39,746 nt of DNA from a virus. The DNA is taken from the IMG/VR virus record IMGVR_UViG_3300025789_000080, positions 1 to 39,746 of that record; one strand, 5' to 3'. The notes beneath the pieces were generated by a model. It saw only the letters and a program-made list of their open reading frames with translations, was not told the origin of the DNA and made no database searches. Positions 2,289 to 21,058 of this stretch are shown here, in pieces (position 1 is the stretch's first letter; the number at the start of each line of letters is the position of its first letter). The translations under genes were made by a program, and so were the position numbers.

Positions 2289-2749
2289 GCGCCTGCAACA
2301 TCATTACTCAATGTTTCGCCTTGGATTACCAACTCGTGAATACTGTTGATAATGTCCTGGGTTCGTTTAGATGCTAGAATGAAGTCGCTGGGACTTAACT
2401 TGCACATGATGTTCATGGTTTCAAATGAAACTCGATCCTTGGTAAGAACTTCTAAAGCACTTTGACGGGCAATATTTTCAATGAACATTTGTTGAGCCAT
2501 GTCATCGCTGTTACTCAACAGTTCTTCACACTCTTTTTGATCCAAATCATTGGCCAAATCTTCTAGGATTTTTAACTCCGCAGAGTCCGCATCGCTGATG
2601 CGTAGCAGTTGAATGCGTGATAAGAATGCCTTTAGCGTTTCTGGGTTTGATGTTCTATCACTGTATGTGATATTATCCAACTCCCATCGACTAGGACCTG
2701 TGGCTAAATCTAATAGTTTAGCAATGTTTAGTTTTGTTTTCTTTGTCAT
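2285..2749 (-). CDS. Hypothetical protein, mostly helical
   Basis: I do not recognise this 154-residue protein. It is rich in Leu, Asp, Glu and Ser with little aromatic content, as expected for a soluble helical protein, and it shows no membrane segment, cysteine cluster or catalytic motif. The frame can be extended to a GTG at 2770. I prefer ATG 2749, which begins MTKKTKLNIAKLL, because AAAGGCAGG lies just upstream and because the inferred transcription start (about 2767) would fall inside the longer form. It is the first gene of a two-gene unit and its stop overlaps the glycosyltransferase ATG. That pairing hints at a related role, but no function can be assigned. Confidence 0.75.
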   Translation of the reverse strand: MTKKTKLNIAKLLDLATGPSRWELDNITYSDRTSNPETLKAFLSRIQLLRISDADSAELKILEDLANDLDQKECEELLSNSDDMAQQMFIENIARQSALEVLTKDRVSFETMNIMCKLSPSDFILASKRTQDIINSIHELVIQGETLSNDVAGA

Positions 2750-2766
2750 AGTGAACCTGCCTTTAT

Positions 2767-2808
2767 ACACTATATGCTAACATAGTGTTAAGATCGTGTC
2801 AACACTTT
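2767..2808. promoter_or_regulatory. Nested inverted repeats over the promoter (possible operator or attenuator)
   Basis: Three related arms lie across the promoter. On the plus strand ACACTAT (2767-2773) pairs with ATAGTGT (2782-2788), 7 of 7, with the -10 box exactly in the 8-base loop. The second arm also overlaps AGTGTT (2784-2789), which pairs with AACACT (2801-2806) across 11 bases. The two hairpins share an arm and so exclude each other. This could be a repressor site with three half-sites, or a chance feature of AT-rich DNA. Confidence 0.35.
2774..2802 (-). promoter_or_regulatory. Sigma70-like promoter for the hypothetical-glycosyltransferase pair
   Basis: On the minus strand a perfect TTGACA box (2797-2802) is followed by a 17-base spacer and TAGCAT (2774-2779, 4 of 6 matches to TATAAT). 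This is the only strong host-type promoter I found; the other candidates look like T4 late boxes. The predicted start near 2767 leaves a short leader carrying the ribosome site for ATG 2749. The call is from pattern alone. Confidence 0.5.
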
Positions 2809-2809
2809 T

Positions 2810-3025
2810 TTAGATATTTCCGTAATATGTATACGGAGTAGTTTTACCACCAAAGGTAGCAGAGAATGAAATTTGAGTACCAGTTGCTTTGCCGCCGTAG
2901 CTATTACCTAATGTACCACTAAGTTTGATATTATCGCCGGCCAAGGTAGATGTAGTAGCATTTGAATACGCTACATATACACCTCCCATTGTTATCGCTG
3001 ATCCGGTTGCTGGTAAAATTGACAC
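2810..3025 (-). CDS. Small putative virion protein following the S74 fibre
   Basis: This 71-residue protein begins at GTG 3025. The start is well supported by GGGAG six bases upstream, placed in the 14-base gap after the S74 fibre stop. The protein is rich in Gly, Thr and Ser, starts SILPATGSAITMGGVYVAYS, and ends TTPYTYYGNI. The opening resembles short marine-phage proteins I recall with the pattern LPxSGxIxMxxV, found beside tail-fibre genes, but their function is not established. The composition suggests an extracellular beta-rich virion part or a fibre accessory. It has no catalytic motif. It ends near 2810, just before the promoter of the next unit. Confidence 0.62.
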   Translation of the reverse strand: MSILPATGSAITMGGVYVAYSNATTSTLAGDNIKLSGTLGNSYGGKATGTQISFSATFGGKTTPYTYYGNI

Positions 3026-3039
3026 AGTCTACTCCCGGT

Positions 3040-6000
3040 TTATTTATTAACCAAAGAGTTCACCAACGCCTTAAGTTGAGCGATTTGTTCTTGTTGTTCT
3101 TTAATGGCTTCTACTAGCAATGGTACGACCTTTTCATATTGGACTGTTTTATAATTTTCTCCGGATTTGCTCAAACCATTCTCATCTGTATCAAATGGGG
3201 CAAGTTTAACCGCTTCTGGCAATACCGCTTCAACTTCGTCGGCAAATAATCCAACTATGTTTGAGTTTTTATCTTGTCCAAAAGTTACTGCTAAATCGTT
3301 TGGATTATAAAGTATACCATTTAACTTTAACACCTTACCTAATGCATTGTCAATAATTTTGATATTTTCCTTTAATCTACGATCTGAGAAAAATGCTGTA
3401 ACTTCGCCTGTTACATTTAATGCACTAGCACTGGTCAAACTCATTCCTGTAGTCATAGTTACAGCACTACCGACTGCTACAGTTTGACTTGCACCTACAT
3501 ACCAGTTGTGTGTATTACCGGAAATAGTATAAGCGCCGCGGCTATTTGCCGCACTTGCAGCACTAAAGAAAGCACCTGCTGCTGCTGTACTTGGATAAAC
3601 AGCATAACCCATTACAGGCCCACCACTGCTATATTCAGTTCCCCAGTTAGATATAGAACCACCACTTCCGTAATAGCCTTGTAAAATAATGCTTCCGTTG
3701 GTACTACTTCCAGATCCTGCTACAATACTACCGTTAACATTTAATCTGTTGGTAAAGCCAGTGTTCAACTGTGCTGATATGTTGTTTACATACAATGTAC
3801 CACTAGCATCTACTAATAATCTTAAAGTACCACCACTGTAAAAACCGTGTTCTCCCGCCGCAGTTTGACCTGCATTGTGCTTGAACATACTGTCGCCGCC
3901 GGCTACAGCAGCTTGTTTTTCAATGGTATAGTAGTTTGCTGCGTTGGCATTTAACTGTATCTTTAAACCTGTAGTATCTGTAAACGATAGTGGAGCACCT
4001 GGTGTACCAGTTCCAATCATTACATTACCGCTGGCAACATGTAATGTTGAGTTAGGAGTTGTTGTTCCAATACCCACTGAACCGCTAATAGGATTCAATA
4101 AAATGTTATTACCTTGGTTGTTTATTTGTAAAGGTTTACTATTCCAAGTTTGAACGTATGTATAACTAGAATCGCTACCTACAGTAAAATCACTAGCATT
4201 TGCATTACCTATGCTGAATACGTAAGTGGCATTATTAGATACTGTGGCATTTGTACCACCAAGCACAGCTAATCTTGTAGCATAACTTGATGCATTTGTT
4301 AAACCAATGCCTACAACACCATTTTGATCAATACGAACTTTTTCTGTTGCAGCAGCATCTTGACTTGAAGTATAAAGCACCAAACCCATTTGTCTACCAT
4401 AGACAGACGGACTAGCATCAAGATCGATACCGTAAATACCAGCTGTACTTATACCACCAGATGACGAATAATCGACTGTGCGATTATTAAATGTAATACC
4501 TGTTCGAGCACCAGTTGCAACGTTAGCACCATTCGACAATGCCTGCAATAAAATATGATTAAGTTGAGTACTGGTTGTTAATGTAGGGAAACGAATATCA
4601 AGTTGTGCATTTGAAGCTGTTGTTACACCAATACCGACAAAACCAGTACTGGCATTGAAGGTAAACGGTACACTAGTTGCTACTGTAGGAGTTTGATTAG
4701 ATCCAGCAGCAGCAACACCTACTATATATTCAATTGCATTAGTGTTAGCAGTAGCATTGATCAATGTGCTTGGACCAGTAGTTCCTTGTGCGCCAGTTGA
4801 TCCAGTAGTACCTTGAGCACCTGTAGTTCCCTGTGTTCCTGTGGTACCTTGTGATCCAGTAGTACCTGTAGTACCTTGTGATCCAGTAGTACCTGTAGTA
4901 CCCTGTGTTCCTGTAGTTCCCTGTGTTCCTGTAGTTCCCTGTGAGCCTGTAGTACCTTGCGACCCTGTTGGTCCAGTAGTTGGCGGTTGGAACTGCAATG
5001 TGTTGGAAGTACCACTCATTGCCAGTGTCCAAGTTGCTGTTGTAGCATTGACGCTTGGGAATGTTAACGATACTGGATGGTTTAGAGTTATACCGCTTGC
5101 TAATGTTAATGTTGCTTGACTTGCAGGTTGGGTGATTGCTACATTATTAAAACTTGTTGCCGTGGTAATACCATTAATGTACGCACCACCGTTGACACTG
5201 AATTTTTCACCCACTTGTCCGGATGTATAACCAACTCCAACAAATGCGTTGGTGGTATCAGCATAGAAAGTACTGGTTGACCCTCTGCTCAACTGTATGC
5301 TAGAGTGAAAACCGGTTTGATTGACAACTCTAAATCTTGCCCAGCCAGATGCTAGTGTATTAGCGCGACCTACATCAAGTAATATTTGACTGTCGCCGTT
5401 TGACACGCTGGCCAACAAGCCTGCTTCTGCATAACTGTAACCAGTACTGTTGTTTGGACCAACAACTACCTGTGTTCCAAAGAATTGTAATGTGCCGCCG
5501 TCGCTGTTTGTGGTCTGACGAATCTGTGCGTTTGGTGCTAGACCAATACTGCCGTTAACCTGTAACAGTCCGTTTGCTTGTGCTGTGGACAGTCCAACTA
5601 AGATGTTACCACTGGCGTCAATACGCAGTTTTTCAGGGCCGCCGGCGCCTTGGTTGAATGTAAAAGCAGCACCTGAACTCCAAGCAATAGATGCTGTTGT
5701 GGTACTGCGAAGATACATTCCTGTAGCACTAGATGGAGTATTAGTATCGCCGACAACTAACGCTGTGGCACTCGCACCAGTGTGACTGACAACAAGTGTA
5801 CCAAAAGTACCAGGTGAAGCTGTGTTAATACCAACACTACTGCCAGTATAAACAAATGTGCTTGTGCCGCTGAGTAAACCGCCAGTGCCAGCGTAAACAA
5901 TTTGGTTAGCAGATAAATTTGTAGCATAGTGATTAGCAGCCTTAATACCAGATCCAGCGCTTCCGCCTACTACCCAGTTAGCAATACCATCATACGACAA

Positions 6001-6594
6001 ACTAATGTAAGCAGTACTTGATGTAGCACCAATATAAAGTCCACTGTTTGTGGCCAATACAGCAGTAGTAGACCCTGTGCTCAATACCAATGCGTTATCG
6101 CCGCTACTGATAACATTCTTATTAACAATGAACTGCGTGCCGTCAACATACAAATCGCCAGCGATGTAAGTAGTACCACCAATATTCAACTGACCAGTTG
6201 CTGGATTTACATAAAAACTACTAGTGGTATATTCTGTTTGAGCGCCGACGGCATTACTAGATGCTAGTACTGGATAGTAACTGGCGTTGGCTGTGGCTTG
6301 ACTTAGACTTACTTGAGCACTAGAGCCACTGATACTGCCGGCAGTTAAAGTACCACTAACAACCAAGTTGGTAGCAGTTAGTGTACCATTAACATAAGCC
6401 CCGCCGTTAACACTGAATTTAGAACCACTGTAAGCACTGGTAACATTAACGTCTAACGCACCGGTGCTGTCTAATCTAAAATATTCTGTACCGTTAGCAC
6501 TGAAAGTTATTGGCAGTGCGATAACGTTAAACGTACCGGTTGTTATGGCTCCTGCGGAGTTTTCTATAAACGTTAAATTACTAGCAATAGACAT
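3040..6594 (-). CDS. Tail fibre with collagen-like segment and C-terminal S74 intramolecular chaperone
   Basis: This 1184-residue tail fibre or spike probably binds the host surface. The N-terminal half is Ser/Thr/Gly/Ala-rich beta repeats, including a module with [13 protein letters not shown] (about residues 138-209) that also occurs in two other fibres here. Residues 541-608 are about 22 collagen-like Gly-x-y triplets, mostly [12 protein letters not shown] and GTTGAQ. Three short VGIGxTT motifs follow (IGVTTA, IGLTNA, IGTTTP), typical of S74-type fibres. The end (about 1066-1184) is a peptidase S74 domain: [11 protein letters not shown] carries the Ser and Lys expected for self-cleavage, followed by [15 protein letters not shown] and a C-terminal coiled coil with [13 protein letters not shown]. 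In endosialidase and related proteins this domain trimerises the fibre and is then cut off. AGGA sits 7 bases before the ATG, and an AATAAATA box lies further upstream. Confidence 0.9.
4771..4974 (-). repeat. Collagen-like Gly-x-y coding repeat
   Basis: These 204 bases encode 68 residues of strict glycine-every-third pattern, beginning [12 protein letters not shown] and ending GAQGTTGP. At the DNA level the unit is a degenerate 9-18 base repeat around GGTACTACAGG. The repeat is open in other frames on both strands as well, which explains spurious overlapping ORFs here. Such segments form trimeric rods in phage fibres and change length easily by slippage. Confidence 0.9.
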
Positions 6595-6616
6595 CAGTGA
6601 ATCCTAAATAGTAGTG

Positions 6617-6624
6617 TATTTATT
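6617..6624 (-). promoter_or_regulatory. Putative T4-like late promoter (AATAAATA)
   Basis: On the minus strand AATAAATA lies 22 bases before the S74 fibre ATG. It matches 7 of 8 bases of the T4 late box TATAAATA and fits the NATAAATA form I recall for T4-like cyanophages. The predicted start would leave a leader that still includes the AGGA ribosome site. Confidence 0.45.
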
Positions 6625-6631
6625 AGAATAC

Positions 6632-9600
6632 TTAGGCTTGCGGCTCACCCCAACGTAGCGTTAAGTTGGCATAAATTGGATTACCAGAAGTCAAATATAC
6701 GTTAATGAACAAGCAATCTGGTCCGTTTGGATAACAATTTCTTGCACCGATAGGTGTATTAGTTAACTCTTTCAACAAACTCAGATCAAGTACGTCTCGC
6801 TCCTGTGGGCTACTAACGAATGAGAAAATAGTTTCTCCAGGTTGTGCAAACCCATTACGAGTAAATGCAATATTAGTACTACTAGCGATACTTTGTAGTG
6901 TATAGTTACTGATTGTAACTTGATTAGTTTGTGGATTAATATATGTAACCACAGTGCCGCCAGTGATAGTAGCACCGTTATCTGTATTTTTACCACCAGC
7001 ACTACTCAAATATACAGCATCACCCGGATTGATACCCACTGTGCTATTCAATGTTATAATGTTGCTGTTAACAGGAGTAGTTCCGCTAGTTTGAAACACA
7101 TTGGTTGCGGTATTATCGAATACAATACTTTGTCCTTGTGCCACTTGTGAAAAACTTGGTTGACCAGTTTGAAGGCCAGTGTTACCTAAACTTTGCCAGT
7201 TAATATTAGCAAAGTTGCTAGGGTAATTCTGCGGATTTAAAATACCAGCAACGACCATGGCACAGTTAGTATTTGTAGAGCCGCCCGCTGTCACTTCCAA
7301 CGCTTGCAATCTCATCTGCGCACGATTAATAAGATCTCGCACCCCTAAGTCGCCTGGAATAGCGTTACTGACACTGGGCGCTAGTCTAATGGCAAATGTA
7401 GTAACTGGCACAGTACTAACTTGGATGTTTGGAATAACATAGTTAAAAATATAGCCGCGGTCATCGTCAAATCCGCCGTCAGCTAGATATGCTGAACCCC
7501 AATGACTTAACTGCGGACTTGCAGTTTGACCAACTAAAATAACACCATTACCTGCACTGTGAACGGTAGCAGTACTACCAGTAAACTGGCGATTCTGACC
7601 AGCGGTAAACTGATTTAGTGTGTATGCACGAGTCAACCCGTTTAATGTATTGGTTGCTGTGGTTATACTGGTATAGTTAATGATTTCTTGGTCAACCATA
7701 ACATTACCTGCGTTAGGGAAAAAGGTAGTATCGCCGATAACCATACTAGTATCACTGGCTAACATAGCATTAGTTAATGTACTGTGGGCACCTTCGTTTA
7801 ATACTTGATAACGCACAGGCATATTACCAGTACGTTGATAAGCTTCTGTATTAACGTTACTGTTTTTCATACGATGTACAATAATATAGTTGCCATCTGG
7901 ACCACGAAGCATCCAATCAATAAAACCAGCACCATACCATGTCCATTGCAGGCCAATCATCTGCATCTTATTCACTTGCAAATTATATCCGCTGGGATTA
8001 TAGATACCATTACTACCATCGCAACGATCCATATTCCATTGATTTTGTGGTATTATTTTATCTAATATTTTAACAATCTTGGCACCACTGGTACTTGTGG
8101 ATCCACGGAATGGCGGATTAACAATAATTTGTGTATCACTTTGTACACCTGTAACTACGTGTGTCATACCTTTAAGTACAATACGATCACCTGCTAAAAG
8201 CTGTTGAGTATAACGACTATTACCGCCTGTAATCACGTGACTACCTACTGTGGCAGTTACTAATCCGATCAAATTAGCAGTACTAGTTCTCTGACCAATA
8301 GCCATTTGAATACCATCATATTGCCAAAATACACCGTTTTGATCGTCAAATGTACCAGCGCGAACTGTGGCTCCATACCAGTTTTGAATACTTAAAGTAC
8401 CTGGCGCACCAATACTTGGATTGGTACTACCTAGTGTATTTGTTGCCAAAAACGACAATGAACGTTCGTCTACGATTGCAGTAACAGTATAAGTTCCGTT
8501 ATATCCAGATGTAAGAATATTACTTAATACAACAACTGCACCTATTTGAGCACCGTGGTCATTATCATCTAATACCACAGTAACAGTACTTCCTGGTGCA
8601 GTACCTGTAGCACTAATACTTCTAACATTATAGTTAGGAGCAAACAAGGCGCCTGTGTTATAGTTAATGGCTTTACCAGATTGGTAACGTAGATATTTCT
8701 TACTTTGACGAATAGCATCCATTCCTGGTGCAGGACCGCCTGTACCTAACTGAACACCGCCGTCAAATGGTCTATGATAATAATAACTATCAGTTCTTGG
8801 ATAAATGTAACCAGTAATGGTACCAGTGATATTACCTACGTTACGAGCAGGATAGGTAAATGTGGTTGCACTGGGAACACTACTGATGTAAAATGGTCCT
8901 TGAGCAAGTTTGTTTAAGTTAGTTCCGTTATCACTAGTGACTAGAGTAATAATAGGATCTCCTGGCATAAAACCGTGAGGATCGGTAGAAGTAACTGTGA
9001 TTGTGGCAGTAGTGGATGCGCCGCCGCCTGCAAACGAAAATGTCACATTGGTTAAACTTGATCCAGTATAGAAACCACCTTTACGTATAACTGTGGATTG
9101 TTGACTAATCACTGTACCACTACTTGCACCAACTTGACCTTTGGCATAATAACTAAATTGAGTCGAACTTGTTACACTATCAACAATAAATGAACCACCT
9201 GCACGATCATAACTAGCCACTGTTTGCAACAATGCATTAACTGTGATAGCGCTACCTGTAGTTAATCCATGAGGATAGTTTGTGTTAACTGTGATATAAC
9301 TTTGAACACCTGCTTGTCCACCGCTGGCATAACTAGCATCTGATGTGACACTGGCAATACTTAAATCAGTACCTGGTACTTCATAGATACCGGGATATCC
9401 GCGTAGTTGACTCAATGACTGCCATTTAGTAGGTTGTTGTCCGTATTCAAAGTCAGCATCGATCATACTTTGTGGTTGACTTACACGAGTACGTTCCCAA
9501 CCATCAGTACCCATAGCCCACGGACGGGTAATAATTGCACCTTGTTGATTTTCTGTATAAATCTGCAATACATCACTACTACTCATACCAGTAGTGCTAT

Positions 9601-9850
9601 AGGCTAATGTAATAGTTGTTACACCATCACTACGCATTGCTTCTGTAGGAAATGCTGTAGTATTACCTCGGCTAAAACTAGTGGTTGTACCAGTATATCC
9701 GTTAGAGGCAAAATTATAAATTACGGTATTGCGAGTAACATTTGTAATAACCAGTAACTGATCTAATCTTACATTACCGGGAATTTGAATAGTGCCTGCC
9801 CCAGCTCCGCCTGGTGTAAAAATATATTGTCTTACTAGCTGTTTTGCCAT
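6632..9850 (-). CDS. Large virion structural protein with repeated HG-containing beta modules
   Basis: This 1072-residue protein resembles the roughly 1,000-residue structural proteins of marine T4-like phages, as I remember them. A marker segment LQWTWYGAGFIDWMLRGP lies near residue 640. The N-terminus (MAKQLVRQYIFTPGGAGAGT) gives way to at least three beta modules with a shared outline: a TITVxxxxPHGxxxGDxI strand pair, then FYISSVPSATTFTYPAR, FIVDSVTSSTQFSYYAK or a related ending. A similar module occurs in the 566-residue fibre upstream. The end is LTLRWGEPQA. No enzyme motif is seen, so a tail, baseplate or fibre-attachment part is most likely. AAAAGGA precedes the ATG, and only 15 bases separate it from the 2502-residue fibre stop, so it is probably cotranscribed with that gene. 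Confidence 0.8.
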   Translation of the reverse strand: MAKQLVRQYIFTPGGAGAGTIQIPGNVRLDQLLVITNVTRNTVIYNFASNGYTGTTTSFSRGNTTAFPTEAMRSDGVTTITLAYSTTGMSSSDVLQIYTENQQGAIITRPWAMGTDGWERTRVSQPQSMIDADFEYGQQPTKWQSLSQLRGYPGIYEVPGTDLSIASVTSDASYASGGQAGVQSYITVNTNYPHGLTTGSAITVNALLQTVASYDRAGGSFIVDSVTSSTQFSYYAKGQVGASSGTVISQQSTVIRKGGFYTGSSLTNVTFSFAGGGASTTATITVTSTDPHGFMPGDPIITLVTSDNGTNLNKLAQGPFYISSVPSATTFTYPARNVGNITGTITGYIYPRTDSYYYHRPFDGGVQLGTGGPAPGMDAIRQSKKYLRYQSGKAINYNTGALFAPNYNVRSISATGTAPGSTVTVVLDDNDHGAQIGAVVVLSNILTSGYNGTYTVTAIVDERSLSFLATNTLGSTNPSIGAPGTLSIQNWYGATVRAGTFDDQNGVFWQYDGIQMAIGQRTSTANLIGLVTATVGSHVITGGNSRYTQQLLAGDRIVLKGMTHVVTGVQSDTQIIVNPPFRGSTSTSGAKIVKILDKIIPQNQWNMDRCDGSNGIYNPSGYNLQVNKMQMIGLQWTWYGAGFIDWMLRGPDGNYIIVHRMKNSNVNTEAYQRTGNMPVRYQVLNEGAHSTLTNAMLASDTSMVIGDTTFFPNAGNVMVDQEIINYTSITTATNTLNGLTRAYTLNQFTAGQNRQFTGSTATVHSAGNGVILVGQTASPQLSHWGSAYLADGGFDDDRGYIFNYVIPNIQVSTVPVTTFAIRLAPSVSNAIPGDLGVRDLINRAQMRLQALEVTAGGSTNTNCAMVVAGILNPQNYPSNFANINWQSLGNTGLQTGQPSFSQVAQGQSIVFDNTATNVFQTSGTTPVNSNIITLNSTVGINPGDAVYLSSAGGKNTDNGATITGGTVVTYINPQTNQVTISNYTLQSIASSTNIAFTRNGFAQPGETIFSFVSSPQERDVLDLSLLKELTNTPIGARNCYPNGPDCLFINVYLTSGNPIYANLTLRWGEPQA

Positions 9851-9865
9851 TTTTATTTTTTCCTT

Positions 9866-12800
9866 TTATATTCCCATTGCCACAGCCATTGCTGTAGCAA
9901 ATGCTGTAATATCTTGTCCATTTTGTTGTAAACTGCCTGCTACATTCAAGTTACCCTGAATTGTACCACCACTACTACTTATCGCATTGGCAATGCTTAC
10001 AGAATTAAAGCTGATTACCCCAATCACTGTGCCATTGCTTGGTATACTACTGAATACAATGCTTGTACCATTGTTGGCAGTATAGGTAGTTGGATACTGT
10101 AGTACACCGTTTTGGTAAACTTGTACTGTTGCTGTATTGTAGTTTGTGGCAAATGTTGTAGTTGTACCATTACTTGTATACTGGTTAAAGATGTAGGCTT
10201 GTTGTCCGCTTGGGTTAAATGACTGCTGACTAATAACTTGAACAACATCACCAGCATTTCTAGGTGTAGCCAATACAACTGTACTGCCATTGCTGGCTGT
10301 AAAGTCACCTGCTACAGAACTCAAACTAATACCGTTAACAAATACCTGTATTTGTCCAACTACATAACCGCCACTGATAGCAAATGTTGTGGTATTTGCC
10401 GCTGCGGTAAATGTTTGTATGCTGTTTGGTAATAGTTGTGTGCCACCTGCATAAACACTACCAGCATACAATGCTCCACCGACTCCGACACCACCTGCTA
10501 CAGTTAGTGCGCCAGTAGTAGTTGAAACAGAAGCAGTAGTTGCAGACAACACCACAGGCACGCTAAATGTTGCGGTATTGTCGTCCATTACCAACGAATA
10601 CACCCAGTTTACAGTACTAGTATTGGCAGGTGCTGTTCTAAATTCATGGCGGCCGTTGCCAAGATGTTGAATGTATAATAAACTCTTTTGTAGGTTAGTG
10701 TCTTGGGCCCATGGACCACCATAAACCGCATTAGTGGAAAGATTTAAACCATTGCCATCTGACCCAACTCTAGCTGTCGAAGTAGTTGTAGCGTTTACAA
10801 ATCTTAGTTTTTCCCATATAGCAGAGTTAATAACATTAGCGGCTGTTGTAGTTGCAGTACTACCAACAGTAATCGATCCGGTGCTCGGATTGATACTGAA
10901 AGTACTGGTTGTGTATTCTGGTAAAGCCTGTGCTGTTGCAGTGTTTACACTGACAAAGACTGGATAATATGTAGCATTAGTTGCAGTAGCTTGTACCGTC
11001 ACTCCAGATGCATTACCAGTACCTGTGCTGACCGCATAACCGTTAACATAGAAGTTTGTAGCAGTTACAACACCATTAAAGTAGCCGCTGCCGTTTACTG
11101 CAAGTTTTTCACCAGCAATTGAAGTTGTTGATGCATATCCAATACCAGTATAACCCAAGAAGGAGTTTGCTGCCAATGCGTCTGCCTGACTAATACCCCA
11201 ACGGTTAGTGATGCTACCATATGTACTGACTGTTGGTGCCCCAAGATACATGCCCCAACTGTTAACTACTGTTACAGTGCTAGCAGACCCGATAGTACCG
11301 CCACCACTGCTATAAAAAGCATAACTGTTGGTGATAACCGACGAAGTGTTGGAAGTCAAGTTGGCAGCAACACCAGTAGCATTTCCGCCAGCCAAAAATT
11401 GGTATAGAGCACCAGCACTGCCTTGATTGACGATGGCCTGACTATACATACCAACGATAGCACTGGTATATGCTGAAGATGATGTGAGGGATTGATTGCC
11501 AGATTGACTGTATATGCCATAGATCGCATTAGCAGGTCCTACATCATTTATATTATCTCTAAGTGATTGGTTGATAATACCATACCATGAAACATTTGAT
11601 GTTGCAGTACTTGAAAGTATTACCGGCTGATTCCAGAAACTATAGATAGTTGAATTTCCATTGACATTAAACTGTGGAGCATTCAACAATCCTGCTGTGA
11701 CTTGCCCAGCAGCAGTGGTATAAGGTGTAGAATTTTGTAATAGATTAAAAATTTGGCTGGTAGTAGTAATCGCCCCAGTGATATTAACATAAGGTAATGT
11801 ACTCGGGCCACCATTACTGACAAACTGACTAGAAGTTGTAATACCACCAACAAATAATCCGCCACCAATACCCACACCGCCAGCAACTGTTAAAGCACCG
11901 GTATTAGTTGATGTCGAAGCAGCAACGCCATTAATAGCTGTGGAAGTATTAACTGTTATTGCAGTTCCATTCCACGACATAACAGCTGAACTTGTTGTTC
12001 TTGTATTCAAGAATGTAATGTTTGGACTGCCTACAACAGTATCATCACCTTGTACAATCAAGTTACCGTTACTACCTGCAACTCTTTGTAGCGTTAAACT
12101 GTATGCTGTATTTGATGTTGTTGACCCAGTACCAACATTAGAACCTGCACTGCCAGCAAAATATCCAGAACCAGTGAATGTTACAGCCCCATTACCTGGA
12201 TTGATTGTAAAACTACTTGTTGTATATTCAGCTTGACCAGCCGTTGTCGATGTGTTTAATGTATTGACAAAAGTTGGATAATAAAGGGCATTGTTAGTGG
12301 TTGCTAATGTAACTACTGTAGATGCAGTGCTAACAATAGTACTCAATGTACCAATAAATGTACCGTAGAATGTTGTAGCTGTAACAACACCAGTGACATT
12401 TATGTTTGCCCCGGACAAGTTGTTTAGTTTTAAGTTAGCATACGCACCCTGCCAAGCAAAGCCGCTGGTACCAACTGTGGCTACACCTAATCTTAATGTA
12501 GTATCAGCAGCATTAGTGTCAGGACCAAATGCCCACCAGTTACCACTTGCCCAGTTACCGGTGTATTGTGGGACACCTGCTGCGGTTGAATACTTGCCAT
12601 TAGCAAATGCATAGGGGTTATTGGCTGATCCTAACTGGCTAGCTGCACTACCTATCTGTAAAACACTGCCGCCAGTTACGGCTGCTATTGGACTAGTGAT
12701 ACCACCTAATAAGAAGTTGCCGTTGGTGTCAATCGCAGCACCTAATGTTGTGCTGTTGATGTTAAAGTTTAATGCACCTGAGCTACCAAATGTTGTAGCA

Positions 12801-15800
12801 GTTACAACGCCACCTACAAATAGTCCGCCACCAATACCAACACCCCCAGTTACTTGTAAAGCACCGCTTGTGGCTGAGTTTGATGATTGTGTTGATAGAA
12901 TTCTTACATTACCCACGCCGTTGGTTAAAATAACACTACCTGTAGATTGGTTATTAATTCTTACATCAGTATTTGATGTAGTCGAAGCGTTATTAATCCA
13001 TAGGTTGCCATCACTGATTGAATGAATATGGAAATTGCCATCATCAAATATTTGTCCATGTGTGCCAATATATACGCCACCAGGATTTCCACTTGCAACT
13101 TGTAATGATCCGCCGACGTTTATAGCACCAGTGGCCGCGTTGATGTAAAAACTGCTGGTTGTGTATTCACTCTGATAACCAGCAGTGGCGTTATTTGAAC
13201 TAACAAATACTGGATAGTAACTTGCATTACCAGTTTGTGCTACTGTCAATACATTATTAGCGTTTGTAGCAGTACCGGCACTTAACCCACTGACTGCTGT
13301 CCAAGTTGCTGTTGTTGCACCTGCGGTCAACACATAACCTGCGTTACCTAATGGAATAAATGCGGTTGTACCGGCTGCTGATTGAATTGGAATACTACCA
13401 GTAGCACCACTAGCAATGTTTGTAGCAGTAGTAGCAGTGCCTGTTAAGTTACCAGTAACATTACCAGTAACATTAGCAATCACAGTGGTAGCAGTTACAA
13501 TACCGTTAACATATACACCACCATTAACGCTGAATATTTCACCTTTTTGTGTACTAGTATAAGAACCAACACTGCTATAACTTGTAGCAAAATGGTTAGC
13601 AGATTTAAGACCAGTTGCAGCAGTTCCACCTACTACCCAGTTAGCTACACCATCAAAGTAAAACGATGCATACGCAGTACTTGAACTAGCGCCTATATAA
13701 AGACCACTGTTGATTGCTAATAGTGCAGTTGTACTGCCGGTGCTCAATATAATGGCACTGTCACCGCTACTAATAACATTTTTGTTGACAACAAACTGTG
13801 TACCATCAACATACAAATCGCCAGCAATGTAAGCAGTACCGCCTACATTTAATCCACCGCCAATACCAACCCCACCACTGACTACTAAAGCACCTGAGCT
13901 GGTACTGTTGGTAGCTGAAGTTGAATAAACTGTTAGGTTACCGCTGGTATCTAACTGCATTCTAGTAACACCAGGAGTAAACCAACGGAACGCACCGCTA
14001 TAGTTGTCTATTTCCCAGTTTTGTGCAGTATTGCCATTAAAGAAACCGGCTCTGGGACTTGGTGTTCCCGAACCTGATATACCAATAAACACACCTGGTT
14101 GAGTTGTGCTTTCGTTAAATGCACCAGCAAACTGTCCGTAACCAGCAGTGATAATGTTGCCGCCTAGACCAATACCACCCGATACAACCAATGCACCAGT
14201 TGTAGTTGTTGTAGATAATGCTGTAGAAGTTATTAATGTTGGTACAGAAATAGTGCTACTTGTTGTATTCAACACCATTAATGAAGTAAATCCGCTAGTG
14301 GCTCGGAATATAAACTGTCCGCCTTGGGCAGCATTGACAGACGAATCAAAGTACATGATACTGCTAACAGTGGACAAATCACGAATTGCCATGTTAGCAG
14401 GACCAGAACTAGCTTGCATACCTAAAGCAATGTTGTTATAAGCACCATTGCCTGCTAGGAATGCTGTACCACCAGTACCGTTGACTGCACCTGTTACAGT
14501 GCCGCCAATACTGATATTACCGGTAGCCGCATTAATACTAAAACTACTTGTTGTATATTCGCTTTGATAAGCAGCAGTGGCATTGTTGGCACTGACAAAT
14601 GTTGGATAATAAGTTGTATTAGCAGGCTGTGCGGCTGTTAGAATGTTATTGGCATTTGTAGCAGTACCGGCACTTAAACCGCTAACTGCGGTCCATGTAG
14701 CAGTAGTTGCACCTGCTGTTAACACATAACCTGCATTACCTAACGGAATGTATGCAGTTGTACCAGCAGCCGATTGGATTGGAATACTGCCAGTAGCACC
14801 GCCAGAAATATTATTTGCCGTTACAGCCAATGCCATTAATGTTGCTGTATTCAATGTCAATGTGACATTGGTACTTCCATTGAACGAACTACCTAGAATA
14901 CCTGTACCTGTTGACAGTGTACCTATCGTTGAATAAGCAGTAGCAGCATTAGTAGCAGTAGATGCAGTTACAGCATTAGCGACTAGAGTTGCTGTGTTAA
15001 ATGCTAGGGCATAGGTAGCAGTTGTGGCCCAAGTAGAAGTAAATGCAGTTACCGCATTGGCAACCAATGTTGCTGTGTTAAAACTTTGTGCAAATGTAGC
15101 AGTAGTTGCCAAACCAACCATAATGGTTGCTGTGTTTGAAGCATAAACATTACCATAGAAGTTTGTAGCAGTTACCGTTCCACCAACAAATACACCACCA
15201 GCAATGCCAACACCACCTGCTACTTGTAAAGCACCAGTGTTAGTTGAACTAGCAGCGGTAGTTCCATTAATAATATGATTTGTACTAGTTAATGATCCAG
15301 TAACAGTTAATCCACCGTTAATACTAACAATGCCTGTGCTTGGGTTAATACTAAAACTACTAGTTGTATATTCGCTTTGATAAGCAGCAGTGGCATTGTT
15401 TGTGCTAACTAAAGTTGGATAATAGTCGGCGTTGGCTGTTTGTGCCGCTGTTAAAATGTTATTAGCATTGGTTGCAGTACCAGCAGTTAAACTACCCAAT
15501 GCTTGCCATGTAGCAGTGGTTGAACCAGCAGTTAATACATATCCACTAGAACCTAATGGGATATATGCAGTTGTACCAGCCGCTGACTGAATTGGAATGC
15601 TACCTTGAGCACCACCAGTAATATTGTTTGCGTTTGTAGCTGTTACGGCATTGACAGCATTGGCAACTAAAGTTGCTGTATTAAATGCCTGTGCGTAAGT
15701 AGCAGTTGTAGCCCATGTAGCAGTAAATGCAGTCACAGCATTAGCAACTAGTGTTGCTGTATTAAATGCTAGAGCATAGGTAGCAGTTGTAGCCCAAGTA

Positions 15801-17374
15801 GCGGTATAAGCATTAACAGCGTTGGCAACTAAAGTTGCTGTGTTAAAACTTTGTGCGTAGGTAGCAGTTACAGCCAATGCCATTAATGTTGCTGTATTCA
15901 ATGTCAATGTGACATTGGTACTTCCATTAAATGAACTACCTAAAATACCTGTACCAGTCGAAAGCGTACCTATGGTTGAATAGGCAGTAGCAGCGTTAGT
16001 AGCAGTAGATGCAGTTACAGCATTGGCAACTAGTGTTGCTGTATTGAAACTCTGTGCGTAGGTAGCTGTTGTAGCCAAACCAACCATAATGGTTGCAGTG
16101 TTAGTTGCAAAAACATTACCGTAGAAGTTTGTAGCAGTTACATTACCACCAATATAAGCATTACCAGAAATACCAACGCCACCATACACTACCATTGTAC
16201 CAGTAGCAGTAGATGTAGCTGGTGTATTTGGTGTATTCATTACCACAGCGATTGCTGCATTGGTTACTGTAGAAGTTGTTCCATTGGCCAGTACAAATCG
16301 CATCTGTGTACCGCTGGTCAATGTACCAAATACCAAGTCACCTAAACCTGCTGTGGCATTTTGACCAACCATTAAATAACCGTCGTTTGGTCCTATTGTT
16401 GTTCCTAAACTATATAACTGTGTGCCATCAAAGGTACTGCTGGCAATACCCATGTCAATGTAAGCAGAACTCAACGAAACGTTATCTGCAGATGCAACAA
16501 TATCAGTTGATGCTTTTGCACCTGGGTTAATGTTTTGTACATTAACTTCCATGTAGTTGTTTAGGTTACCGGATGCTTGGAACATGGTTTGAGCAAATGG
16601 GGTAAAGTTTGTTATACCCGCGTACAATGCTCCACTGCCTGTCGCATCACCGTAGAATGTACCACTATTAGCAACCAGCGTATTCAACAAAACATTGGTT
16701 CCTGTAATAATACCTGTAACATATAAGTTACCAGTTAAGTAACCGTCCCCGTTAATATTAAAACCGTTGTTACCACCGATGCCACCAGCAACATATAAGG
16801 CATTGGAACTATAAGAACTTGTACTACTTTGAGTGCTGGTTACGATTAATGTTGCTACTTGATTAGTAAAACTTGGGCCGCTTGTTCCATTGCTAACCAA
16901 CAATGTTCCAGCAGTACCTGGTCCGGTGAAGGCAGTTGAACCAACAGCAGATTGATAAGGTACTTGACCAGCGGTACCGCCTGCTAGATTAGTAGCAGTT
17001 GTAGCACTGCCTGCACTTAAACCACTGATAGCAGTCCAAGTGGCTGTATTTGACCCAGCAGTTAGCACATATCCGTTAGTGCCTAGAGGAATAAATGCAG
17101 TTGTGCCAGCAGCACTTTGAATAGGGATGCTACCAGTAGCACCACTAGCAATGTTTGTAGCAGTAGTAGCAGTACCGGTTAAGTTACCAACATGCAGGGT
17201 AGCAGTAACAGTGCCACCGACAAATAGTCCTCCTGCAATACCTGCTCCGCCCGCAACTTGTAAGGCGCCTGAATTAGTACTAGTTGTTGCTAATGTAGAT
17301 AATATTGTAGCCGTATTTTCGACCACAATACCTTTTCTGACTCTGAAGTCAGCGGTTTGTGCTGTTATTGCCAT
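9866..17374 (-). CDS. Giant repeat-built tail fibre protein (2502 aa)
   Basis: This is one of the largest proteins in the window, nearly all Ala, Thr, Ser, Gly, Val and Asn. It holds about nine copies of the GALQVAGGVGIAGGLFVGG module and four copies of SIPIQSAAGTTA-IPLG followed by GYVLTAG and TATW. There are six copies of FNTATLVANAV and repeated EYTTSSFxINPxTG segments. One copy of the [13 protein letters not shown] module lies near residues 1175-1248. The C-terminus holds two related binding-type beta modules (IQVFVNGISLSS and VQVYQNGVLQYP), then a short helical end MAVAMGI. No S74 domain is present. The likely role is a long tail fibre with a repetitive shaft. An exact TATAAATA box lies about 45 bases upstream, and AGGGAAG precedes ATG 17374. 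There are no in-frame stops, so it appears intact. The receptor is unknown. Confidence 0.85.
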   Translation of the reverse strand: MAITAQTADFRVRKGIVVENTATILSTLATTSTNSGALQVAGGAGIAGGLFVGGTVTATLHVGNLTGTATTATNIASGATGSIPIQSAAGTTAFIPLGTNGYVLTAGSNTATWTAISGLSAGSATTATNLAGGTAGQVPYQSAVGSTAFTGPGTAGTLLVSNGTSGPSFTNQVATLIVTSTQSSTSSYSSNALYVAGGIGGNNGFNINGDGYLTGNLYVTGIITGTNVLLNTLVANSGTFYGDATGSGALYAGITNFTPFAQTMFQASGNLNNYMEVNVQNINPGAKASTDIVASADNVSLSSAYIDMGIASSTFDGTQLYSLGTTIGPNDGYLMVGQNATAGLGDLVFGTLTSGTQMRFVLANGTTSTVTNAAIAVVMNTPNTPATSTATGTMVVYGGVGISGNAYIGGNVTATNFYGNVFATNTATIMVGLATTATYAQSFNTATLVANAVTASTATNAATAYSTIGTLSTGTGILGSSFNGSTNVTLTLNTATLMALAVTATYAQSFNTATLVANAVNAYTATWATTATYALAFNTATLVANAVTAFTATWATTATYAQAFNTATLVANAVNAVTATNANNITGGAQGSIPIQSAAGTTAYIPLGSSGYVLTAGSTTATWQALGSLTAGTATNANNILTAAQTANADYYPTLVSTNNATAAYQSEYTTSSFSINPSTGIVSINGGLTVTGSLTSTNHIINGTTAASSTNTGALQVAGGVGIAGGVFVGGTVTATNFYGNVYASNTATIMVGLATTATFAQSFNTATLVANAVTAFTSTWATTATYALAFNTATLVANAVTASTATNAATAYSTIGTLSTGTGILGSSFNGSTNVTLTLNTATLMALAVTANNISGGATGSIPIQSAAGTTAYIPLGNAGYVLTAGATTATWTAVSGLSAGTATNANNILTAAQPANTTYYPTFVSANNATAAYQSEYTTSSFSINAATGNISIGGTVTGAVNGTGGTAFLAGNGAYNNIALGMQASSGPANMAIRDLSTVSSIMYFDSSVNAAQGGQFIFRATSGFTSLMVLNTTSSTISVPTLITSTALSTTTTTGALVVSGGIGLGGNIITAGYGQFAGAFNESTTQPGVFIGISGSGTPSPRAGFFNGNTAQNWEIDNYSGAFRWFTPGVTRMQLDTSGNLTVYSTSATNSTSSGALVVSGGVGIGGGLNVGGTAYIAGDLYVDGTQFVVNKNVISSGDSAIILSTGSTTALLAINSGLYIGASSSTAYASFYFDGVANWVVGGTAATGLKSANHFATSYSSVGSYTSTQKGEIFSVNGGVYVNGIVTATTVIANVTGNVTGNLTGTATTATNIASGATGSIPIQSAAGTTAFIPLGNAGYVLTAGATTATWTAVSGLSAGTATNANNVLTVAQTGNASYYPVFVSSNNATAGYQSEYTTSSFYINAATGAINVGGSLQVASGNPGGVYIGTHGQIFDDGNFHIHSISDGNLWINNASTTSNTDVRINNQSTGSVILTNGVGNVRILSTQSSNSATSGALQVTGGVGIGGGLFVGGVVTATTFGSSGALNFNINSTTLGAAIDTNGNFLLGGITSPIAAVTGGSVLQIGSAASQLGSANNPYAFANGKYSTAAGVPQYTGNWASGNWWAFGPDTNAADTTLRLGVATVGTSGFAWQGAYANLKLNNLSGANINVTGVVTATTFYGTFIGTLSTIVSTASTVVTLATTNNALYYPTFVNTLNTSTTAGQAEYTTSSFTINPGNGAVTFTGSGYFAGSAGSNVGTGSTTSNTAYSLTLQRVAGSNGNLIVQGDDTVVGSPNITFLNTRTTSSAVMSWNGTAITVNTSTAINGVAASTSTNTGALTVAGGVGIGGGLFVGGITTSSQFVSNGGPSTLPYVNITGAITTTSQIFNLLQNSTPYTTAAGQVTAGLLNAPQFNVNGNSTIYSFWNQPVILSSTATSNVSWYGIINQSLRDNINDVGPANAIYGIYSQSGNQSLTSSSAYTSAIVGMYSQAIVNQGSAGALYQFLAGGNATGVAANLTSNTSSVITNSYAFYSSGGGTIGSASTVTVVNSWGMYLGAPTVSTYGSITNRWGISQADALAANSFLGYTGIGYASTTSIAGEKLAVNGSGYFNGVVTATNFYVNGYAVSTGTGNASGVTVQATATNATYYPVFVSVNTATAQALPEYTTSTFSINPSTGSITVGSTATTTAANVINSAIWEKLRFVNATTTSTARVGSDGNGLNLSTNAVYGGPWAQDTNLQKSLLYIQHLGNGRHEFRTAPANTSTVNWVYSLVMDDNTATFSVPVVLSATTASVSTTTGALTVAGGVGVGGALYAGSVYAGGTQLLPNSIQTFTAAANTTTFAISGGYVVGQIQVFVNGISLSSVAGDFTASNGSTVVLATPRNAGDVVQVISQQSFNPSGQQAYIFNQYTSNGTTTTFATNYNTATVQVYQNGVLQYPTTYTANNGTSIVFSSIPSNGTVIGVISFNSVSIANAISSSGGTIQGNLNVAGSLQQNGQDITAFATAMAVAMGI
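14826..15010. repeat. Internal duplication inside the giant fibre, copy 1
   Basis: This stretch and 15876-16060 match almost base for base by eye. Both encode a block with STIGTLSTGTGILGSSFNG and NVTLTLNTATLMALAV. The copies lie 1,050 bases apart on the same strand. Differences are scattered and mostly silent, so the duplication is recent on the scale of the protein but not brand new. Confidence 0.85.
15876..16060. repeat. Internal duplication inside the giant fibre, copy 2
   Basis: Partner of the copy at 14826-15010. Near 15650-16070 and 14975-15115 the flanks are built of shorter units of about 25 residues (TWATTATYA, FNTATLVANAV), six in all, so the duplication sits in a larger repeat field prone to unequal exchange. 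Confidence 0.85.
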
Positions 17375-17418
17375 TTATTCGCTTCCCTTTCCACGTGTAA
17401 CGGCGGTTACTGATATGT

Positions 17419-17426
17419 TATTTATA
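17419..17426 (-). promoter_or_regulatory. T4-like late promoter (exact TATAAATA)
   Basis: On the minus strand TATAAATA, the exact T4 late -10 box recognised by gp55, lies about 45 bases before the ATG of the 2502-residue fibre in a non-coding gap. No -35 box is expected for this promoter class. Position, strand and an exact match make this the best late promoter in the window. Confidence 0.7.
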
Positions 17427-17458
17427 TGTTTTGGAAATTAAGGGTTAGGTACTGCTAT

Positions 17459-17774
17459 TTAGGCCGTAGTTGATGTAGTAAAACTGATTATACCTGTGCC
17501 AGAAGTAAACACATAAATGTAGTTTCCAGATGTATTTGTAAATGAATAGTTTAGTGTTCCTGGTATAGACATAACAGCATATGTATTGGGATAACTTACT
17601 ATAACCACACCTGATCCGCCATTGCCGCCGTTAGTAGCTCCCTGGCTTTGATTCTCGCCGCCGCCAGCAACTACTAAAATCTGTACTGTATTAGTAGTTA
17701 AAAAATATGTAGTTACAGGTATATGTGATTAATGTCACTGCTCCATTAAACGATAACCCGCCACTAATATTCAT
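17459..17774 (-). pseudogene. Frameshifted glycine-rich tail-fibre gene remnant
   Basis: This fills most of the 402-base gap between two fibre genes. ATG 17774 opens a frame beginning MNISGGLSFNGAVTLITYT that stops at 17691-17693 after 27 codons. In the +1 frame the reading continues with VQILVVAGGGENQSQGATNG, NGGSGVVIVSYPNTYAV, then YSFTNTSGNYIYVFTSGTG and ISFTTSTTA, to a TAA at 17459. That pattern (LVVAGGG, Gly-rich loop, GSGVVIVSY, then a beta end) is familiar from bacterial and phage glycine-rich surface proteins. Removing one T from a T6 run (17700-17705 on the plus strand) would restore a 105-codon gene; a 2-base loss in the upstream TATA run is another explanation. The downstream frame has no ATG of its own. 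The ATG lies 2 bases after the previous stop, as in a compact operon. A homopolymer assembly error or productive slippage cannot be excluded. Confidence 0.7.
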
Positions 17775-17776
17775 TA

Positions 17777-20700
17777 TTAAATCGCAATCGCAGTACGCTG
17801 TAGTTTAATAACCATTGAACTTGGGCTAGTTGGTGTAAACTTCAATACGACATTTGTACCAGAATAAGCTGCATCAAATGTTCCTAGTTCACCGTTATTA
17901 GTCATAACCGCATATTCTGTCATGTAAACATTAGTGCCACCATCTTGGAACAACATGATTTTCTCAACATGGATATTTGGCAAATCGGTGATTTGAACTG
18001 TGTACTCTGCACTTCTGTAACTGCTTGTACTAAATGTATCCAAATATTGAGTTACGCCAGATTGTCCGCTTGATATTGTTGCGCTTACATAACTAGATTC
18101 TAAGTAAGCATTACCAGCAAATGCAGATACAGTTGTACCAACAGTACCAGTATTACCACCGTAAACTACACCGCCAACGACGACATTACCACCGACTCCA
18201 ACACCACCGGTAACTTGTAGTGCGCCTGTTGTAGGACTTGTACTATTTGTAGTAGAAGTCATGTAAACAGTATTAGTAAATGTACTAATACCATTGACTG
18301 TTAGGTTACTGGTAATAGTTGCTGTTGTAGCAGTAAAGTTACCAGCACTAGCATTACCTAAATTGATTGGGCTATTTAATGTTAATGTGCCGTCAATAGT
18401 TGTAGGACCGTGTACTGTTAAACTTGTAGCAGTCACTACAGTAGCAGTAACACCTTGTAGGAAAGATTCACCATTGACCGTTAAGTTGCTGACAATAGTT
18501 GCTGTTGTAGCAGTAAAGTTTGTAGCAGTAGTTGAACCTAGTGTTGTTTGACCTGTAACAGATAAAGTAGTTGCTGTAACAAGTCCGGCTGTAACACCTT
18601 GTAAAATACTTTCTCCGCCAACTGTTAAGTTATTAACAACTGTTGCGGTGGTAGCGGTAAAGTTTGTAGCAGTTGCAGAACCAAGTATTGTTTGTCCAGT
18701 AACTGTTAAGTTACCATTTACTGTTTCATTGCCATTTACTGTTACACTTGTTGCTGTAAATGCAGTAGCAGTAACCCCTGCTAATGTACTTTGACCAACA
18801 ACATTTAATGTGGTATTAATAACAGCGGAAGTAGCTGTTAATATTGTAGCAGTAACACCTGCTAATGTACTTTGACCACTAACATTTAATGTAGTAGATG
18901 TTAAGTTAGTGGCAGTTACTGCACCACCAACAAACAATCCGCCACTAATACCAACACCACCAGCTACTGTTAATGCGCCTGTATTGGTACTAGATACACT
19001 GGTATTTGCAGCATAGAAACTAGCAACAATGTTGCTGGCCAATGTGCCGCCAGTATGGATATAAACATATTTGTTAGCAGCATCTGTACCTAGTGTTAAG
19101 TTACCGCCATCAACATACAAGTAACCGTCATTGGCACCGCTAATGGTCCAAGTAGCAGTGGAGAATCCACTGTTATTGATACCCATGTCAATGTAGTTAG
19201 ACGAGTCAGTACCGTTATTTGCAGTTGCAATAAAATCACTACTTGCTTGATTACCAGTACTGGTGTTTTGAATCTGTATTTGTGTATAGCCATTGACATT
19301 ATTTGTCAATACCATTAATGGATTAGCTAGGCCAATAGTACTTTGTGTAGGTCCGCCGTAGAATACGCCGCCTACATACATATTTTGAGCAACACCAACA
19401 CCACCAGCTACTTGTAAAGCGCCAGTATTAGTTGAGCTTGCACCAGCTGTTCCAATAACACTGATGTTTGTAGCGGTCAAGGTCTGACCAATAATCGCAC
19501 TATTAGTTACATTTAGAGCTGTATTAGTGCCGGTTATTGCTACGTTAACAAATGTACCAGTAGTACCACTGATTGTATCTAAACCAACACCTTTTAAGAA
19601 AATGCTGCCGTTAACATTAACGTTACCACCAACCCACAAGTCTTGGCTAATACCGGCACCACCAGTTACCATCAAGGAACCACTTGCGCCAGTTGCCGCA
19701 GTAGCATTGTTGCCGCCACCTATAGCAATGTTAGTTGTAGTGAATAAACCTTGTGTACCACCATATCCGGTTGGATTGAATTCTAAACTGGTACTAAATG
19801 CGGTTTGACCTGGTGCAGATTGGTATGGAATCTCATAAGCCAACCCTGCTTGAATATTTGTAGCAGTAGTTGCATTACCTGCTGTCAATCCAGAAATAGA
19901 TGTCCAGGTCGGTATGCCACCAGCCATTTCCAAAATAGTGCCATTGGTGCCAGTTGCAATAAATCCAGTTTGACTTGCACCTGTTTGATATACTAGCTGG
20001 CCGACTGCACCCCCGTAGATATTACCAGGAGCACCTGCTTGTCCTAAAATAGCATTAATGTTTGTTGCGGTAATGGCGCCGGCAGCATATACACCACCTG
20101 CAACACCTAGACCACCTGCAACTTGTAAAGCACCTGTATTAGTTGAACTTACACTTGCAGTAGAGTTAACTTTAACACCACCACTAGATACCCAGTTTGC
20201 AACTCCATCATAAGTTAAACTAATATAAGCAGTTGACGAACTTTGACCAATATATAAACCAGCACCGTTGGCTAATATGGCACTTGTGCTACCTGTACTT
20301 AAAACAAGAGCATTATCGCCTGAGCTAATGGTATTTTTGTTAACAACAAACTGTGTACCATCAACATACAAATCACCAGCAACATAGGCTGTGCCGCCAA
20401 CATATAATGCACCACTAATGCCAGCGCCGCCAGTAACTTGTAAAGCACCAGAACCATTGGCAGCACCAGTTGCCGCACTATTAGAGTTAGCAATCAAATT
20501 GCCAGATACTGTAGCAGCACCAGATACTGTTAATGTTGTAGCTGTTACAGATGTAGCAGTAACACCTTGTAATGTACTTTGACCTGTAACAACAAGGCTT
20601 GTTGCTGTCACTAAACCAGCGGTAACACCTTGTAAAATACTTTCGCCAGTTGCATAAAAAGTTGTAACAGTAGTGATTGCAGCATTTAATGCACCTAGTG

Positions 20701-21058
20701 TACTTTGACCTGTTACATTTAATGTGCTTTGTAGTGTTGCCGGACCAGTAACTGTTAAGTTAGTTGTAGTAAAGTTTGTAGCAGTAGCACTAACAAATGT
20801 AGATAATCCTGTTACATTTAAAGTATTAGTAAAGTTAACAGCATTGGTAGCAGTTAATGTACCATATACAGTCGTAGCGCCGTAAAATGTGGAAGTAGTA
20901 CCGACTATTAAGTTTTTATTGATTGCGGCGCCGCCAGCAACTTGAAACGTGCCAGCTTGCGATCCTTGCGTGTACGTAGCAGTAGTAACTGGGGAGGTAC
21001 CTTCTACGGATAACCCTGCTCGGGTGATAAAATCTTTAGTTAGTGATGTTAGTGCCAT
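17777..21058 (-). CDS. Repeat-built tail fibre protein (1093 aa)
   Basis: This fibre is built of two repeat kinds. One is a run of 25-30 residue units of the form TLNVTGQSTLAGVTAT, more than a dozen copies in two fields. The other is seven copies of the GALQVAGGVGI module. The [13 protein letters not shown] module shared with two other fibres lies at about residues 221-292. The last 100 residues are not repetitive (SYRSAEYTVQITD, EKIMLFQDGG, VYMTEYAVM, MVIKLQRTAIAI). They match the end of the neighbouring 405-residue protein, which suggests a common C-terminal tip or attachment domain. I recall this ending in fibres of marine T4-like phages. GAAGGG lies 12 bases before the ATG, a rather long spacing. 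There are no catalytic motifs. Confidence 0.82.
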   Translation of the reverse strand: MALTSLTKDFITRAGLSVEGTSPVTTATYTQGSQAGTFQVAGGAAINKNLIVGTTSTFYGATTVYGTLTATNAVNFTNTLNVTGLSTFVSATATNFTTTNLTVTGPATLQSTLNVTGQSTLGALNAAITTVTTFYATGESILQGVTAGLVTATSLVVTGQSTLQGVTATSVTATTLTVSGAATVSGNLIANSNSAATGAANGSGALQVTGGAGISGALYVGGTAYVAGDLYVDGTQFVVNKNTISSGDNALVLSTGSTSAILANGAGLYIGQSSSTAYISLTYDGVANWVSSGGVKVNSTASVSSTNTGALQVAGGLGVAGGVYAAGAITATNINAILGQAGAPGNIYGGAVGQLVYQTGASQTGFIATGTNGTILEMAGGIPTWTSISGLTAGNATTATNIQAGLAYEIPYQSAPGQTAFSTSLEFNPTGYGGTQGLFTTTNIAIGGGNNATAATGASGSLMVTGGAGISQDLWVGGNVNVNGSIFLKGVGLDTISGTTGTFVNVAITGTNTALNVTNSAIIGQTLTATNISVIGTAGASSTNTGALQVAGGVGVAQNMYVGGVFYGGPTQSTIGLANPLMVLTNNVNGYTQIQIQNTSTGNQASSDFIATANNGTDSSNYIDMGINNSGFSTATWTISGANDGYLYVDGGNLTLGTDAANKYVYIHTGGTLASNIVASFYAANTSVSSTNTGALTVAGGVGISGGLFVGGAVTATNLTSTTLNVSGQSTLAGVTATILTATSAVINTTLNVVGQSTLAGVTATAFTATSVTVNGNETVNGNLTVTGQTILGSATATNFTATTATVVNNLTVGGESILQGVTAGLVTATTLSVTGQTTLGSTTATNFTATTATIVSNLTVNGESFLQGVTATVVTATSLTVHGPTTIDGTLTLNSPINLGNASAGNFTATTATITSNLTVNGISTFTNTVYMTSTTNSTSPTTGALQVTGGVGVGGNVVVGGVVYGGNTGTVGTTVSAFAGNAYLESSYVSATISSGQSGVTQYLDTFSTSSYRSAEYTVQITDLPNIHVEKIMLFQDGGTNVYMTEYAVMTNNGELGTFDAAYSGTNVVLKFTPTSPSSMVIKLQRTAIAI

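What the first reader, a model, noticed from the sequence alone, without database searches (positions are those of the whole stretch)
17459..17774. Broken glycine-rich fibre gene with a +1 shift at a T6 run
Two frames read together give one familiar glycine-rich surface domain (LVVAGGG ... GSGVVIVSY). A single base removed from the T6 run at 17700-17705 restores 105 codons. It may be a decaying gene, a phase-variable on/off switch, a productive slippage site or an assembly error. Phase variation of a fibre by homopolymer slippage would be a notable control.
Basis: seen in the sequence. Interest (0 to 1): 0.72.

Follow-up and report, generated by a model that had tools for sequence, protein, structure and literature searches.

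The report
Decayed glycine-rich tail gene remnant
Between two tail genes of a T4-like environmental phage lies a leftover piece of a glycine-rich tail-tip gene that has lost most of its middle, its reading frame and its ribosome site, so it is most likely an ordinary dead gene rather than an on/off switch.

Summary
On the minus strand a 27-codon ORF (17774-17691) and an open +1 frame (17728-17459) together encode the two ends of one glycine-rich (Gly_rich_2-type) phage protein. A second contig of the same virus is identical here, T6 included. The headline mechanism is not supported. (1) The frame change is not pinned to T6: it may lie anywhere in about 38 nt, and a family profile scores an upstream join as well as the T6 join (29.0 vs 28.4 bits). 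(2) The gene is broken in more than one way: 18 residues separate VVAGGG from GGSGVV, against 191-248 in 29 relatives, so about 190 are missing and a one-base change would not restore the domain. (3) The start lacks the Shine-Dalgarno match that most neighbouring genes have. (4) T6/A6 runs are no commoner than chance. (5) In 18 relatives the two flanking tail genes are only 49-129 bp apart; one relative carries an intact glycine-rich gene in that slot. Best reading: decaying remnant of an accessory glycine-rich tail-tip gene at a cargo slot. Ordinary. Phase variation and productive slippage are unlikely, but not formally excluded without reads or peptides.

The parts
17691..17774 (-). 5' piece of the remnant: ATG and 27 codons plus stop, MNISGGLSFNGAVTLI...; resembles the N-terminus of glycine-rich phage proteins (MKITGGFNFAGGFTV, MNIGPGIRFGKGISI)
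   Evidence: translation; relatives; profile alignment
17459..17728 (-). 3' piece of the remnant in the +1 frame: ...TVQILVVAGGG-ENQSQGATNGGNGG-SGVVIVSYPNTY...TTA*, no start codon of its own before VVAGGG
   Evidence: phrog_2295 E 6.8e-6
17691..17728 (-). stretch open in both frames, within which the frame change can lie (includes the T6 run)
   Evidence: profile scores of two joins nearly equal
17700..17705 (-).
   Evidence: identical in the second contig
17618..17662 (-). place of the missing glycine-rich core (18 residues between motifs instead of 191-248)
17777..21058 (-). upstream gene, 1093 aa tail-fibre-like protein (C-terminus like cyanophage tail fibre / baseplate proteins)
9866..17374 (-). 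downstream gene, 2502 aa repeat-rich tail protein, N-terminus conserved (DF[RK]V[KR]xG[LI]VV)
17419..17426 (-). TATAAATA, T4-late-promoter-like, upstream of the downstream gene; TATAAATA or a close variant in most relatives
17383..17394 (-). GTGGAAAGGGAA leader / ribosome site of the downstream gene, conserved in relatives

Best explanation
The stretch is a decaying remnant of an accessory glycine-rich (Gly_rich_2-type) tail-tip gene that once sat in the slot between two conserved tail genes of a T4-like environmental phage. Shown: both ends of the gene remain in order, in two different frames; the core of the domain is missing; the start lacks a Shine-Dalgarno match; most relatives have no gene in the slot, and one has an intact glycine-rich gene there. 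Inferred: the gene was acquired as cargo, lost most of its core by deletion (perhaps between GGC-rich Gly codons) and then suffered a 1-nt (or equivalent) frame change somewhere in 17728-17691; the order of these events is unknown, and no working protein is made.
For: Homology of both pieces. Core of 18 residues against 191-248 in 29 relatives; Pfam Gly_rich_2 spans the intact relatives and gives no match to the remnant. Flanking genes 49-129 bp apart in 18 relatives, 402 bp here. Intact 398-aa glycine-rich gene (fn3 plus sub-threshold Gly_rich_2) in the same slot in L066. Start codon duplex energy with the 16S tail +0.3 kcal/mol, against -2.4 to -8.4 for the structural genes around it. Same sequence in a second contig.
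Against: The internal deletion is in frame, which by chance would happen one time in three and could mean that a shortened gene worked for a time. The tail after SGVVIVSY is well preserved, so decay is recent. The ATG lies 2 nt after the stop of the upstream gene, so translation by coupling cannot be excluded.
Confidence: 0.88

Rival explanations
1. Phase-variable tail gene: slippage of the T6 run during replication switches a 105-codon protein on and off.
For: A homopolymer lies in the stretch where the two frames overlap.
Against: T6 is short and at chance frequency, and A/T runs of 6-7 lie inside or at the ends of 8 intact genes of the window. The 'on' product would still lack about 190 residues of its domain. 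No Shine-Dalgarno match. The other contig shows the same length. An upstream join fits the family equally well.
Confidence: 0.03
2. Productive ribosomal +1 frameshifting in the overlap gives one fusion protein.
For: The +1 frame is open and conserved in sequence; a stop codon ends frame 0 in the overlap.
Against: Relatives encode the protein in one uninterrupted frame. No stimulator with conservation could be shown, and the start is poor. TTTTTTA reads as a -1 heptamer only in the frame that has no start.
Confidence: 0.03
3. Assembly artefact: a wrong homopolymer length, or collapse of a glycine-codon repeat, makes an intact gene look broken.
For: Glycine-rich cores are repetitive; reads are not available.
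Against: A second contig (3300003814_000018) is identical over 19,021 bp apart from 3 N, although it may come from related samples and similar software. A collapse would have to drop about 570 bp and change the frame as well.
Confidence: 0.06

Closest known systems
Gly_rich_2 (PF21722) / phrog_2295 glycine-rich phage proteins
   Same: N-terminal M[NEK]I..G..F..G motif, LVVAGGG, GGSGVVIVSYP and the Y.FT.G.G.I.F end, all in the same order
   Different: About 190 residues of core are missing and the ends are in two frames; the remnant itself does not match the Pfam model
Glycine-rich tail-fibre adhesins of T-even phages (gp38 of S16, T2, PP01; polyglycine II sandwich)
   Same: Glycine-rich protein associated with tail genes of T4-like phages; a likely analogue in role
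   Different: No sequence link tested or found; the analogy is from the literature (PMC6630733, PMC12892980)
Accessory genes inserted between tail genes (cargo slots) in T4-like phages
   Same: Extra gene in some relatives, plain short spacer in most
   Different: Here the extra gene is decayed

Membership tests
Gly_rich_2 / phrog_2295 protein (as an origin of the remnant) | Sequence match to the family | tested here: met
   phrog_2295 E 6.8e-6, positions 822-890; profile of four intact relatives aligns to both pieces
Gly_rich_2 / phrog_2295 protein (as a working member) | Complete glycine-rich domain (about 226 model positions) | tested here: not met
   No PF21722 match up to E 1; intact relatives match nearly the whole model; 18 residues against 191-248
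Gly_rich_2 / phrog_2295 protein (as a working member) | One uninterrupted reading frame | tested here: not met
   Two frames here; one frame in relatives
Homopolymer phase-variable gene | Population mixture of run lengths | not testable with these tools
   No reads; two contigs agree on six
Homopolymer phase-variable gene | Unusually long or enriched homopolymer | tested here: not met
   Runs of 6 or more: 15 seen, 20.0 +/- 4.6 expected
Homopolymer phase-variable gene | Intact product in the 'on' state | tested here: not met
   Core still missing after any join
Programmed frameshift gene | Same two-frame layout kept in relatives | tested here: not met
   Relatives use one frame; no other phage with this two-frame layout was found in IMG/VR scans

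The most novel reading that the evidence does not exclude
A shortened glycine-rich tail-tip protein whose expression depends on +1 slippage (replicative or ribosomal) in the 38-nt overlap.
Probability: 0.04. Interest if true: 0.6.

Novelty: new member of a known kind. Interest (0 to 1): 0.12.

Why it matters
It matters little by itself. It documents gain and decay of a glycine-rich tail-tip gene at a slot between two tail genes in T4-like environmental phages, which fits rapid turnover of host-recognition genes. It is also a caution that a homopolymer near a frame change is not evidence of phase variation.

Tried and rejected
tblastn of the joined protein and of its C-terminal part, and blastn of the 361-bp stretch, against 50,697 phage records: no match (low-complexity filtering may hide some). 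Pfam scan of the pieces: only a chance PsbT match at E 0.66. Close-relative scans of IMG/VR with the +1 frame and with the end of the upstream gene returned only the second contig of the same virus. Terminator and sigma-70 scans of the spacer: nothing. A -1 slippery heptamer (T TTT TTA) was considered and rejected, since it is in phase only in the +1 frame, which has no start. The literature search for homopolymer phase variation of phage tail fibres gave papers mainly about host-side phase variation, judged from titles and abstracts.

Full report
What is there. The window is a 39.7-kb virus record with T4-like structural genes: major head protein (phrog_138, E 3.9e-98), tail sheath and long-tail-fibre-like genes. 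The finding lies on the minus strand in the 402-bp spacer 17375-17776 between a 1093-aa tail-fibre-like gene (17777-21058) and a 2502-aa tail gene (9866-17374). A 27-codon ORF starts 2 nt after the stop of the first gene (17774-17691). The +1 frame is open from 17728 to 17459.

Is it one gene? Yes, by origin. The +1 frame matches phrog_2295 (E 6.8e-6). A pattern scan for its N-terminal motif found an intact 546-aa relative, L146 (MKITGGFNFAGGFTVESPLSVLVEYLVVAGGG...GGSGVVIVRYADTY...YKFTGNGTIKFN), and L037 carries three more complete genes of the kind in tandem (MNIGPGI..., MEIGQGI..., MNIGPGIRF...). A profile of these four aligns first to MNISGG...VVAGGG and then to GGENQSQG...SFTTST of the window. 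The E-values of that small test are not meaningful in absolute terms, but the order and the borders are.

It is broken more than once. The profile alignment jumps from position 36 to 227. Among 29 relatives found by a DNA motif scan, VVAGGG and GGSG[VI]V lie 191-248 residues apart; here 18. Several of the 29 are near-duplicates, but none is short. PF21722 covers nearly the whole of the intact relatives and does not match the remnant up to E 1. The start has no Shine-Dalgarno match (duplex +0.3 kcal/mol), whereas the structural genes around it give -2.4 to -8.4; three other listed starts in the window are also weak (2770, 38325, 39716).

Is T6 the site? The sequence does not say. Both frames are open across 38 nt (17728-17691). 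For a search only, two joins of the pieces were scored: one at T6 and one upstream; 28.4 and 29.0 bits, no difference. The upstream reading gives a proline-bearing linker, as relatives have, a weak hint. A/T runs of 6 or more number 15 in the window against 20.0 +/- 4.6 simulated, and 8 lie inside or at the ends of intact genes.

Second contig. IMGVR_UViG_3300003814_000018 overlaps window 1-19021 and is identical except for 3 N at 18179-18182. It shows the same T6. Its independence from the window's reads is unknown.

The slot. Relatives of the upstream gene and of the downstream gene were fetched and the spacer compared. In 18 contigs (L065, L067-L072, L074, L075, L078, L150, L155-L157, L159, L165, L167, L174; some near-duplicates) the two genes are 49-129 bp apart. 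In those read in full the spacer often holds a terminator-like hairpin, and in most cases a TATAAATA-like late promoter and a GTGGAAAGGGAAACTAA leader. The window keeps the promoter (17419-17426) and the leader (17383-17394) but has no hairpin. L066 carries in the slot an intact 398-aa fn3 plus glycine-rich gene and a 142-aa gene. L077 carries a 580-aa collagen and glycine-rich gene directly after the upstream gene; its next gene was not of the downstream kind. So the window's extra 300 bp are what is left of a cargo gene.

How it works. Most likely it does not. The inferred history is gain of a glycine-rich tail-tip gene, deletion of the core, a frame change, and loss or absence of a ribosome site. 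Glycine-rich tail-tip adhesins of T-even phages (gp38, polyglycine II sandwich) decide host specificity (PMC6630733, PMC12892980), so turnover of such a gene is expected; that this family plays the same role is inference.

Noticed in passing
window 17383-17426 and L065-L078, L150-L174 upstream of the downstream tail gene: A leader (about CCAGCCAATTGGTGGAAAGGGAAACTAA) with a late-promoter-like TATAAATA is conserved before this one tail gene across many environmental T4-like contigs, with a short CCAATTGG palindrome; its exact 12-base core occurs once in the window.
   Followed up: partly
window 17691-17776: The terminator-like hairpin that relatives have after the upstream tail gene is absent here, so the two tail genes may be co-transcribed.
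   Followed up: partly
L037 8420-11651: At least four glycine-rich genes in tandem, with N-termini of the same type (MNIGPGI / MEIGQGI / MEIGPGI), in one phage contig.
   Followed up: no
L144, L145, L147: The same N-terminal motif (MEITGGMTFSGGM) heads repeat proteins of another kind (TDKAIFGYG...TNLVSNTGVV repeats), which suggests a shared N-terminal attachment module with exchangeable bodies.
   Followed up: no
window 9866-32192: Several large tail genes share the repeat STxTGALQVAGGVGIxGxLxVGG.
   Followed up: no
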